DNA of 36,800 bases from Methanobrevibacter sp. (GTDB taxonomy: Archaea; Methanobacteriota; Methanobacteria; Methanobacteriales; Methanobacteriaceae). The stretch is taken from NCBI RefSeq assembly GCF_017539065.1, contig NZ_JAFYHP010000006.1, positions 1 to 36,800 of the forward strand. Reading direction: 5' to 3'. Made by a program: the position numbers and the translations under genes. Shown here piece after piece: positions 372 to 10,479 of the stretch; positions within the stretch are counted from its first letter, which is position 1, and each line of letters begins with the position of its first letter. The notes beneath the pieces were generated by a model that ran no database searches, had not been told where the DNA came from, and saw nothing but the letters and a program-made list of their open reading frames with translations.

Positions 372-1163
372 ATGTTTTATCTAGTTGGTTTAGGATTATT
401 TGATGAGAAGGATATTTCTCTTAAGGGATTGGAATGTTTAAAAAATGTTGATAAGATTTATGCTGAATTTTTCACATCAAGATTATTTGGGTCAAGCTTT
501 GAAGCTATTGAAGAATTAATTGGTAAAAAAATAGAGGTTCTTGTTAGAGGGGAAGTTGAAGAAGAACATAAATTCATTGAAGAATCTAAAACTTGTGATG
601 TTGCTTTGATTACTGGCGGAGATCCTTTAATTGCAACTACTCATAGCGATTTTTTAGTTCAATGCAGTAAAAAAGGGATTGATTTTGAAGTGATTCATGG
701 TTCGTCTATTTTATCTTCCGCACCTGCCATTTCAGGACTTCAAGGTTATAAATTTGGTAAAGTAACGACAATTCCTTTTCCAGATTATAATTTTTATCCA
801 AAATCTCCTTATGAAGCAATTGAGGAAAATCTTAAAATGGATCTGCATACTCTTGTTTTACTGGATATTCAAGCTCACAAAGACAGGTATATGACTGTTA
901 ATGAAGGTTTGGAGTATTTAATAAGTATCTATAATGATTTGGATAGGGAAGGATTAATAACTGAGGATACATTAGCCATGGGCATTGCTCGTGTTGGCTC
1001 AAAAGATGTGGTTGTTAAAGCAGGCAAAATTTCCGAATTGATCGATTTTGATTTTGGAGGGCCTCTCCATTGTATTGTTATTCCATCTAAACTTCATATT
1101 GTTGAAGCAGAATATTTAGTAGAAATTGCTGGAGCGGACCCCAAAATAATAGATAATGTCTGA
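372..1163 (+). CDS. dphB: Diphthine synthase (DphB)
   Basis: This 263-residue protein has the usual length and sequence of archaeal diphthine synthase. That enzyme uses S-adenosylmethionine to methylate the modified histidine of elongation factor 2 on the way to diphthamide. It opens MFYLVGLGLFDEKDISLKG and carries the TP-methylase signature ALITGGDPLIATTH near residue 80 followed by a IHGSSILSSAPAISGLQ segment. No Shine-Dalgarno motif precedes the ATG, while a TTTATGCT-like box begins 29 nt upstream, so the mRNA is probably leaderless. It diverges from trm5 across 36 bp; both genes act on the translation machinery. Confidence 0.93.
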   Translation: MFYLVGLGLFDEKDISLKGLECLKNVDKIYAEFFTSRLFGSSFEAIEELIGKKIEVLVRGEVEEEHKFIEESKTCDVALITGGDPLIATTHSDFLVQCSKKGIDFEVIHGSSILSSAPAISGLQGYKFGKVTTIPFPDYNFYPKSPYEAIEENLKMDLHTLVLLDIQAHKDRYMTVNEGLEYLISIYNDLDREGLITEDTLAMGIARVGSKDVVVKAGKISELIDFDFGGPLHCIVIPSKLHIVEAEYLVEIAGADPKIIDNV

Positions 1164-1165
1164 TT

Positions 1166-1292
1166 TAAAAAAAGGGGGAGTTTGGAAGTAGTTGTGGTCA
1201 TTTCTACTTCCTTGAACATAATTAAGCATTTTGGAGATTATAAAATGTTTGACCGATGTTCATCACAAGACATGAAAGTTACTTCACATCGT
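1166..1292 (-). ncRNA. Putative structured small RNA, copy A
   Basis: Read on the minus strand, a TTTATATA box (1314-1321) lies 22 nt before a predicted start at about 1292. The roughly 125-nt RNA would fold into an outer stem CGATGT/ACATCG (1286-1291 with 1254-1259) enclosing TCAT/ATGA, a second hairpin CATTTT/AAAATG with loop AUAAUCUCC (1227-1247), and a third hairpin GGAAGTAG/CTACTTCC (1184-1191 with 1204-1211). It ends with CTCCCCC and seven Ts, a plausible archaeal terminator, just after the dphB stop. No coding frame is conserved with copy B. I do not recognise the family; transcription is inferred. Confidence 0.6.
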
Positions 1293-1637
1293 ATATTATA
1301 TATATTTTTGTATTATATAAATGTTTTTATTTGATTTTTCAGTATTTATTTAATGTTTTGTAGTTATGTTCACTAAGAATTTTCTAAAATCAAGAAAATA
1401 TTATCAGATTTCTAATTTTTAGTAAAAATTTAAAAAATTTATATGTTAAAATTAAACATTAATAAGTATTTAAGGAAAGTAAATTAATAAAAAGGGGGAG
1501 ATGGAAGTAATGGTGTATTTACTTCCGGATATAATATATTTTAAAACATTTTGGAGATTATAAAATGTTTGATGTTCATAAAAAGATATGAATTATATTT
1601 TACATCGTATATTATATATGTTTTAGGCATATATAAA
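1167..1637. repeat. Two diverged copies of a ~155-bp element
   Basis: Unit A (about 1167-1321) and unit B (about 1489-1637) are direct repeats about 320 bp apart. Shared blocks in order are: an A-run followed by GGGGGAG, an inverted repeat GGAAGTA...TACTTCC, the segment CATTTTGGAGATTATAAAATG, GATGTTCAT...ATGAA, ACATCGTATATTATATAT, and TATATAAAT. The spaces between blocks have diverged, but the pairing potential is kept. The matching ends, including a minus-strand promoter-like box and an oligo-T end, suggest that complete genes were duplicated rather than random sequence. Confidence 0.85.
1489..1608 (-). ncRNA. Putative structured small RNA, copy B
   Basis: This copy has the same order as copy A. 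A TTTATATA box on the minus strand (1630-1637) lies again exactly 22 nt before the predicted start at about 1608. It is followed by GATGT/ACATC (1602-1606 with 1571-1575) enclosing TTCAT/ATGAA, the hairpin CATTTT/AAAATG with identical loop AUAAUCUCC (1547-1567), and GGAAGTAA/TTACTTCC (1503-1510 with 1519-1526). It ends in CTCCCCC and five Ts. The innermost pair of the last stem is G-C in copy A and A-T here, a compensatory change. A plus-strand transcript from a TTTATATG box at 1438-1445 cannot be excluded. Confidence 0.6.
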
Positions 1638-9997: not shown

Positions 9998-10016
9998 ATA
10001 TTAAAATCAAATATAA

Positions 10017-10280
10017 AGTTGGCTAGACTGGAGGGTTAGGGGTCCTCTGTAAGCACACACCCCCTTTGGTGCAGTTGAAGTTCAAGAGGCGGCTTTTTAA
10101 GAGAGTATGAGCCTAGAAAAACAACATAGAAACCTCGTCCTACAGGATTGGTGGTGGTGAAGTTTTTACTGGAGGGTAAAAATTAGTCATCTCTAATATG
10201 GGAACGGGTCAGGCCCGGAAGGGAGCAGCTCTACTGTTAACATGCAATGCTTGTAGAATCCCGGGGTGGAGTTGGCTTTT
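10017..10280 (+). ncRNA. ffs: Signal recognition particle 7S RNA
   Basis: The diagnostic helix 8 is present at about 10207-10230 as GGGTCAGGCCCGGAAGGGAG followed by CAGC, with its GGAA tetraloop and the asymmetric loop that binds SRP54. A GGAGGGTTAGGGGTCC region near the 5' end and the AATCCCGGGGTGG segment near the 3' end fit the archaeal fold. AGTTGGCT occurs at both ends (10017-10024 and 10270-10277), which can pair with itself antiparallel through four central G-U wobbles to close helix 1. A T-run at 10277-10282 ends it. The ends are inferred from this pairing and the TATA box. Confidence 0.93.
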
Positions 10281-10356
10281 TTAGATCACTCATATTTTTG
10301 AGATTAGTCCACTTTTGAACATGCCATTTATAAAAATAATTAAGTTTATTAAGATG

Positions 10357-10391: not shown

Positions 10392-10475
10392 GTCGGGATG
10401 GCCCAGCCTGGTACGGCGTCGGACTGCTAATCCGATGGTCATTTGACCTCCGGGGTTCAAATCCCCGTCCCGGCG
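10392..10475 (+). tRNA. tRNA-Ser (anticodon GCU)
   Basis: The acceptor stem GTCGGGA pairs with TCCCGGC with one T-G wobble, and the discriminator base is G. The anticodon stem TCGGA/TCCGA holds loop CTGCTAA with anticodon GCT, reading AGC and AGU. A long variable arm (TGGTCATTTGACC) marks a class II tRNA, as expected for serine. The T arm is CGGGG-TTCAAAT-CCCCG. CCA is not encoded and there is no intron. A short T-run after the gene reaches the stop codon of the convergent transporter gene 4 bp away. Confidence 0.96.
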
Positions 10476-10479
10476 CTTT

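What the first reader, a model, noticed from the sequence alone, without database searches (positions are those of the whole stretch)
1166..1637. Tandem duplicated small-RNA genes of an unrecognised structured family
Two diverged copies keep the same three hairpin domains, a minus-strand TTTATATA box exactly 22 nt before the same start region, and an end CTCCCCC plus oligo-T. The unpaired regions have drifted, one stem pair changed G-C to A-T with pairing retained, and no reading frame is conserved (a 4-nt length difference shifts any short frame). That is what is expected of a real RNA gene under structural selection. The sequence directly shows the repeats and pairing; transcription and strand are inferred.
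Basis: partly seen in the sequence, partly recalled or inferred. Interest (0 to 1): 0.8.

Follow-up and report, generated by a model that had tools for sequence, protein, structure and literature searches.

The report
Paired small RNAs targeting formate dehydrogenase
Two neighbouring predicted small-RNA genes, of a kind conserved beside the same gene in methane-making archaea of animal guts, carry a stretch complementary to the ribosome-binding site and start codon of the formate dehydrogenase gene, so they likely turn down the making of that enzyme.

Summary
The window holds two diverged copies of a predicted minus-strand RNA gene (1167-1292 and 1489-1608), each with a TATA box and a C/T-rich end. 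Covariance models find the RNA in 57 of 67 genomes of the genus and in three other genera (11 of 19 g9 genomes, plus G069 and G075), nearly always convergent with dph5. H1 swaps an A-U pair between genera with pairing kept, and G-U pairs favour the minus strand. Rfam has no match.

The invariant core is antisense to the Shine-Dalgarno sequence and start codon of fdhA, the second cistron after fdhC. In the own genome the 19-mer TTTTGGAGATTATAAAATG occurs exactly three times: two RNA copies and fdhA. fdhA ranks 1 of 499 sampled starts. In 50 of 61 genomes with both, pairing (G-U allowed) runs at least 14 nt (median 24). G069 shows one compensatory change across the two molecules.

Best reading: trans-acting antisense sRNAs that mask the fdhA ribosome-binding site. 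Transcription, pairing in the cell and repression are inferred. Against it: four genomes have the RNA without fdhA pairing (G043, G046, G048, G052), and G092 has the fdhA motif with no RNA found.

The parts
1167..1292 (-). predicted sRNA copy 1 (start near 1292, oligo-T end at 1167-1173)
   Evidence: CM R1 118.3 bits over 1170-1292; alignments. The copy is in the model's training set
1489..1608 (-). predicted sRNA copy 2
   Evidence: CM R1 103.6 bits; in the training set
1314..1321 (-). TATA box of copy 1 (TTTATATA)
   Evidence: sequence; A-rich + TTTA[AT]A box at near-constant spacing in relatives of 4 genera
1630..1637 (-). TATA box of copy 2 (TTTATATA)
   Evidence: as for copy 1
1228..1252 (-). 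antisense core of copy 1, complementary to the fdhA ribosome-binding site and start codon (24 of 25 nt)
   Evidence: 96% match at G000:C14:32622-32646; fdhA identified
1548..1572 (-). antisense core of copy 2
   Evidence: exact 19-mer shared only with copy 1 and fdhA in the own genome
1269..1290 (-). hairpin H1 of copy 1
   Evidence: strand preference
1585..1606 (-). hairpin H1 of copy 2 (from the alignment; not in its own minimum-energy fold)
1184..1211 (-). hairpin H3 of copy 1 (GGAAGTAG..CTACTTCC)
1503..1526 (-). hairpin H3 of copy 2 (GGAAGTAA..TTACTTCC)
1174..1180 (-). CTCCCCC tail motif of copy 1, function unknown
   Evidence: sequence; TCCCCC in 61 of 90 copies of the genus
1494..1500 (-). 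CTCCCCC tail motif of copy 2, function unknown
   Evidence: sequence
372..1163 (+). dph5 (diphthine synthase), convergent neighbour used as the syntenic anchor
   Evidence: TIGR00522 E 2.8e-99; found beside the model's match in 57 of 61 other loci

Best explanation
Two tandem predicted small-RNA genes of a family found in four genera of Methanobrevibacter-type methanogens carry a core complementary to the ribosome-binding site and start codon of fdhA, and likely act in trans by pairing there and blocking translation of formate dehydrogenase. The steps are as follows. (1) Each copy has its own TATA box and ends in a T-run beside dph5 (sequence shown; transcription inferred). (2) H1 and H3 form stems, and the AAUCUCC seed is held open in a loop between them (predicted; kept through compensatory changes or through replacement of the stem). 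(3) The core pairs with up to 28 nt of fdhA mRNA (26 in the own genome), covering GGAG to the start codon or codon 3 (complementarity shown; binding inferred). (4) fdhA is the second cistron after fdhC, so masking its start would lower FdhAB without touching the formate transporter, that is, discoordinate operon expression (inferred by analogy with Methanosarcina mazei sRNA162). When the RNA is made is unknown; H2 or formate supply is a guess.
For: Own genome: the best non-self match of the RNA is fdhA, E 6.9e-5. The 19-mer occurs exactly three times: 2 sRNA copies and fdhA. fdhA ranks 1 of 499 script-called candidate starts from the window and 400 kb (30-nt core duplex -32.2 kcal/mol; next -22.0; mean -8.9, sd 3.5; the fdhA stretch was put in on purpose); with the first 100 nt of copy 1 it is still first but barely (-35.8 against -34.3). 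Collection-wide: 61 exact matches of a 20-mer in one genome per species (84,980 species by the tool's description): 28 sRNA, 26 fdhA starts, 2 other Methanobrevibacter gene starts, 5 in unrelated bacteria (4 of the 28 reassigned by hand from context and contig length). Across genomes: 50 of 61 with both have a run (G-U allowed) of at least 14 nt, median 24; random own-genome starts reach that in 1.7% (median 9, maximum 16). The fdhA leader is 95% identical at -17..-1 but 52% at -35..-18 in 52 genomes (7 odd ones set aside; 84% and 50% with all 59); at -17..-1 dph5 has 51%, fdhC 76% and the second candidate 62%. Family: one H1 pair changes from A-U to U-A in 8 and to U-G in 1 of 26 sequences (9 cells; 0 of 500 shuffles); g9 replaces the stem around the core but keeps the loop. 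G069 changed both sides of one sRNA-fdhA pair. The seed is 0.86 unpaired against 0.48 for the whole RNA in 87 copies. Cognate pairs bind slightly better than permuted ones (2 of 10,000; relatedness not removed). Joint absence: in the two genus genomes with a full dph5 flank and no sRNA, G061 has a diverged fdhA leader and G026 (75% complete) has no fdhA found.
Against: No expression, binding or mutant data. G043 and G046 keep an intact core although their fdhA leaders lack the site; G048 and G052 have decayed cores and no pairing. G011 and G001 have fdhA changes that the RNA does not compensate. G092 has the fdhA motif but no sRNA in its full dph5 flank. Five g9 genomes pair over only 13 nt and G006 over 10. 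Seven genomes have the RNA but no fdhA start (G014, G037, G056-G059, G090; 83-94% complete; G037 has a fragment at a contig edge). Most of the complementarity is conservation, not covariation: one clean compensatory change, and even there the G069 RNA ranks only 33rd of 61 RNAs on its own fdhA by energy. The strongest random control duplex (-33.9) exceeds many cognate ones. Two shuffle measures of H1 covariation (number of pairs, pair types) do not exceed shuffles. Activation rather than repression is not excluded.
Confidence: 0.8

Rival explanations
1. The RNA pairs with the fdhA leader but activates or stabilises it, for example by opening an inhibitory leader fold or guarding the intergenic region from nucleases.
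For: The pairing data are the same. PMC3600222 (passages) says M. mazei sRNA154 is important for growth when fixing nitrogen; that it stabilises mRNA is recalled. The fdhA GGAGATTA is itself predicted partly paired (0.57 unpaired, 68 leaders).
Against: Pairing covers the SD and start codon themselves, which a ribosome needs free; it does not lie beside them.
Confidence: 0.1
2. The plus strand matters: the locus is a duplicated fdhA leader, acting as a decoy or sponge, or a relic.
For: The plus strand reads exactly as an fdhA SD and start codon and also folds somewhat better than shuffles (z -2.29, -2.21).
Against: H1 keeps its pairs on the minus strand (335 of 344 cells in A2, 205 of 208 in A4) better than on the plus strand (295 and 183); H2 and H3 do not discriminate. 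The promoter box is on the minus strand at near-constant spacing in four genera. A relic would not be expected to keep compensatory changes in H1 and H3. No frame is kept.
Confidence: 0.04
3. The RNA is structural or protein-binding with another main role, and fdhA is one of several targets or a by-product.
For: H3 and the CTCCCCC tail are conserved in the genus without a known partner. G043 and G046 keep the core without fdhA pairing. A membrane-protein start (MKRDWKIKFSILM..) also matches: exact 19-mer in G007 and rank 3 of 499 in the own genome.
Against: fdhA is the strongest site in the own-genome sample and the most conserved of the leaders compared; the membrane-protein leader is 62% identical over the same span.
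Confidence: 0.06

Closest known systems
sRNA162 of Methanosarcina mazei (PMC3510493; abstract and outline seen)
   Different: Homology was not tested; it is a Methanosarcina RNA with a single-stranded linker seed and another target. Here the seed is predicted in a hairpin loop, pairing reaches 28 nt, and copies are often tandem.
sRNA41 of M. mazei (recalled; seen only as a search term counted in the listing)
   Same: Recalled as masking several ribosome-binding sites within one operon.
   Different: Recalled only; no sequence comparison was made.
RyhB of enterobacteria acting on formate dehydrogenase (PMC13414033, passages)
   Same: An sRNA reported to lower formate dehydrogenase.
   Different: Bacterial RNA, no sequence comparison made; the passage describes over-expression in Enterobacter aerogenes for product yield.

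Membership tests
Trans-encoded RBS-masking antisense sRNA (as a kind) | Encoded away from its target | tested here: met
   sRNA at G000:C1:1170-1608, fdhA on contig C14
Trans-encoded RBS-masking antisense sRNA (as a kind) | Complementarity to the SD and start codon, beyond chance and conserved | tested here: met
   Rank 1 of 499; 50 of 61 genomes with a run of 14 nt or more against 1.7% of random starts; 11 of 61 fall short
Trans-encoded RBS-masking antisense sRNA (as a kind) | Seed accessible in the RNA fold | tested here: met
   0.86 unpaired against 0.48 overall, 87 copies that hold AATCTCC; prediction only
Trans-encoded RBS-masking antisense sRNA (as a kind) | Own transcript | not testable with these tools
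   Promoter box and T-run only; no RNA data
Trans-encoded RBS-masking antisense sRNA (as a kind) | Changes target translation | not testable with these tools
   No experimental data
Any Rfam 15 family | Match to a covariance model | tested here: not met
   No gathering-level match at this place and none up to E 10 over 1100-1720
M. mazei sRNA162 family | Sequence homology to sRNA162 | not tested
   Its sequence was not fetched; R1 and R2 were run only in the family and class of the window's genome

The most novel reading that the evidence does not exclude
A lineage-wide small-RNA switch, often a tandem sibling pair, sets FdhAB synthesis apart from the formate transporter in gut and rumen methanogens including M. 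smithii- and M. ruminantium-sized genomes, and has kept its target across four genera while replacing most of its own scaffold.
Probability: 0.65. Interest if true: 0.75.

Novelty: new member of a known kind. Interest (0 to 1): 0.65.

Why it matters
Few archaeal sRNAs have a named target, and my nine paper searches listed none for Methanobrevibacter (open-licence PMC only). Formate is an electron source for these organisms. The review PMC10658910 (passages) notes that rumen samples lacked Fdh transcripts in one study although Methanobrevibacter carry the genes, while fdhAB expression rose in co-culture with a formate producer. A conserved RNA aimed at the fdhA start would make the regulation of formate use in gut methane producers directly testable, and the seed/target pair gives a ready compensatory-mutation test.

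Tried and rejected
Rfam families: none match. Small protein: no frame kept on either strand. A second seed in H3 or the CTCCCCC tail: scoring 499 own-genome starts with the tail gave weak or unrelated tops (best -24.3 for tail 1, probably a spurious ORF; an ATPase leader AGGGGGAGAG, protein MAEQGHGHGHHGHGGQMT.., at -22.9 for tail 2), and the fdhC leader only -14.9; not pursued. Kissing hairpins (mRNA AUUUU..AAAAU opposite the sRNA loop): fits the genus but the g9 leaders lack that palindrome, so not adopted. The R1 hit in G045 (L143) is the antisense strand of its own fdhA start and was dropped; so was a reverse-strand hit in L036. The G073:C27 hit was treated as a likely contaminant (sequence as in G099). 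Weak R2 hits in G082 and G102 (E 0.008-0.009) were not followed. Membrane-protein start as a second target: 22 leaders read from 30 loci of 59 matching genomes; partly conserved only.

Full report
What is in the window. Two diverged copies, 77% identical, lie on the minus strand between dph5 (372-1163, TIGR00522) and an ORF of unknown family (1728-2225, no NCBIfam or Pfam match). Each has TTTATATA 21 nt before a common start ACGATG, a first hairpin, a middle domain, a hairpin GGAAGTA..TACTTCC, CTCCCCC and a T-run. Both fold better than shuffled sequence on the minus strand (z -2.67, -5.97) and, less markedly, on the plus strand (z -2.29, -2.21); copy 2 folded alone does not form H1 in its minimum-energy structure. 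Rfam 15 has no match here.

The family. BLAST in 67 genomes of the genus gave matches in 64, but some of these are only short matches to another place, discussed below. A covariance model from 43 copies at 30 loci (R1) matched 58 genus genomes and 2 others of 138 in the family. One of the 58 (G045) is the fdhA start itself and was dropped, leaving 57 of 67 with the RNA: 33 with two copies found and 24 with one, not all pairs being on one contig. dph5 lies convergent beside the match in 57 of 61 other loci examined; of the four others, two end at a contig edge (L033, L148), one is the false G045 hit (L143) and one is a dispersed copy in G038 (L141). Reading dph5 flanks of other genera showed relatives that R1 had missed or, for G075 and G095, matched only weakly: nine in g9, one in g3 (G069), one in g6 (G075). 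A second model of promoter plus 5' domain (R2, 26 sequences) matched 73 of 151 genomes of the class at E 0.1: 57 of 67 in the genus, 11 of 19 in g9, G069, G075, a likely contaminant in G073, and two weak hits (G082, G102) that I do not count. Of the g9 matches, G088 and G100 were not in the training set.

Structure and strand. In 26 sequences of four genera H1 is paired in 98.6% of cells (15-56% when slid by one to three columns); one pair changes on both sides in 9 sequences (U-A in 8, U-G in 1), which 0 of 500 shuffles reach, though the number of such pairs (499 of 500) and of pair types (147 of 500) does not exceed shuffles. In 43 genus copies three pairs change on both sides (17 of 500), with 7 such cells (0 of 500) and pair types not unusual (83 of 500). 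Relatedness inflates such counts, and many pairs never vary. H1 relies on G-U pairs that would be A-C on the other strand: 335 of 344 cells pair on the sRNA strand and 295 on the other (A2), 205 and 183 of 208 (A4); H2 and H3 do not tell the strands apart. In most g9 copies the stem around the core is new (TTAATAAATT/AATTTATTAA or close to it) but still presents TATAATCTCCAATAA in the loop, and in G095 a different 10-bp stem does so. The AATCTCC seed is unpaired at 0.86 on average in the 87 copies that hold it, against 0.48 for the whole RNA. Of all 90 genus copies, 54 match a strict GGAAGT..A[CT]TTCC pattern and 61 hold TCCCCC, so H3 and the tail are less uniform than in the 43 of A2. I did not recognise H3 or CTCCCCC in the g9 copies; their 3' end is unknown.

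The target. The best non-self match in the own genome is 24 of 25 nt at C14:32622-32646. It spans the SD and start codon of a gene starting MVEIKYVPTICPYCGTGCG, formate dehydrogenase alpha (TIGR01591, 711.8 bits over a cut-off of 666.25; the part read is 502 aa), 81 nt after fdhC, a formate/nitrite transporter (TIGR00790). The 19-mer occurs exactly three times in that genome: both RNA copies and fdhA. Among 499 candidate gene starts called by a simple script in the window and 20 stretches of 20 kb, one chosen to hold fdhA, fdhA is first with the 30-nt core (-32.2 kcal/mol against -22.0 for the next) and first but close with the first 100 nt of copy 1 (-35.8 against -34.3). The exact 20-mer was sought in the collection of one genome per species: 59 stretches, 61 matches. 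My script called 24 sRNA, 26 fdhA and 11 other; four of the 11 (L168, L187, L197, L208) are sRNA loci by context and contig length, leaving 28 sRNA, 26 fdhA (one in a contig labelled Cellulosilyticum, likely misbinned), 2 further Methanobrevibacter gene starts and 5 in unrelated bacteria. The tool warns that records near the window may be left out.

Conservation of the pairing. The fdhA leaders of most of 59 genus genomes share ATTTTGGAGATTATAAAATGGTTGA with little change, while the sequence just upstream drifts: 95% identity at -17..-1 against 52% at -35..-18 when seven odd leaders are set aside, 84% against 50% with all. At -17..-1 dph5 (42 leaders), fdhC (50) and a membrane-protein gene (22) have 51%, 76% and 62%. 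Of 61 genomes with both RNA and fdhA start, 50 have a continuous pairing run, G-U allowed, of at least 14 nt (median 24, best 28); 20 random own-genome starts per genome gave that in 1.7% (maximum 16), although the strongest control duplex was -33.9 kcal/mol. In G069 fdhA reads GGAGATTATATAATGG and the RNA CCATTATATAATCTCC: both sides of one pair differ from the rest together; by energy, however, the G069 RNA ranks 33rd of 61 on that leader and its own leader 17th of 61 for it. In G075 pairing has slid over the start codon (22 nt). Cognate pairs are slightly stronger than permuted ones (mean -33.3 against -32.2; 2 of 10,000 permutations; 1 of 10,000 within the genus), with relatedness not removed.

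Results against. G043 and G046 keep the core though their fdhA leaders lack the site; G048 and G052 have decayed cores and no site, which could be joint decay. G011 and G001 have fdhA changes without compensation. G092 has the fdhA motif and a full dph5 flank without the RNA. The RNA without an fdhA start: G014, G037, G056, G057, G058, G059, G090. Ten genus genomes have no RNA found. dph5 was sought in nine of them (not G045) and found in four; a full flank was readable only in G026 and G061, which have respectively no fdhA found (75% complete) and a diverged leader. In g9 the leader motif may be conserved for other reasons, since pairing there is 13-15 nt in 7 of 8 genomes with both.

How it likely works. 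An RNA that covers GGAG, the spacer and AUG should block initiation; since fdhA follows fdhC, the effect would be discoordinate: transporter kept, enzyme lowered. M. mazei sRNA162 is proposed to act so inside a bicistronic mRNA (PMC3510493, abstract). In the own genome the two copies share the core and differ outside it. Transcription, timing, binding and the sign of the effect are untested here. A membrane protein of unknown family is the other recurring site that I noticed.

Novelty. As a kind, RBS-masking trans sRNAs are known. As a family it is not in Rfam, and nine searches of open-licence papers listed nothing on it by title or abstract; I read passages of three of the listed papers and the abstract of a fourth. 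Subscription papers were not searched.

Noticed in passing
L216 1501 (G007:C1:225949), L165, L233, L364: A membrane-protein-like gene of no Pfam family in the 120 aa scanned (MKRDWKIKFSILM.., about 250-270 aa) often starts with GGAGATTA..AAAATG; exact 19-mer in G007; possible second target.
   Followed up: partly
L193 (and L240, 2 mismatches): A small ferredoxin-like start (MADITIDLEKCDNCG..) carries the exact 20-mer in one Methanobrevibacter genome.
   Followed up: no
window 1174-1180 and 1494-1500: CTCCCCC before the T-run is kept in 61 of 90 genus copies (as TCCCCC) without a known role.
   Followed up: partly
window 1184-1211 and 1503-1526: H3 arms GGAAGTA/TACTTCC are nearly invariant in the 43 copies of A2, more than a mere stem needs; a protein site or second seed is possible.
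   Followed up: partly
L003 1552-1577: A perfect palindrome AAAGAAGCTTTTTAAAAAGCTTCTTT lies between fdhC and fdhA in the own genome; possible processing or termination site.
   Followed up: no
L328 (G073:C27) and L178: Likely contaminant or misbinned contigs: G073 holds a second dph5 region like that of G099; a Cellulosilyticum-labelled contig carries a Methanobrevibacter-type fdhA start.
   Followed up: partly
L302 (G098:C16): Repeated GACACAATTCACAATA units between fdhC and fdhA in G098, whose other fdhA start lies on contig C50.
   Followed up: no
window 10016-10330 and 10392-10476: Archaeal SRP RNA next to tRNA-Ser(GCT); ordinary.
   Followed up: yes
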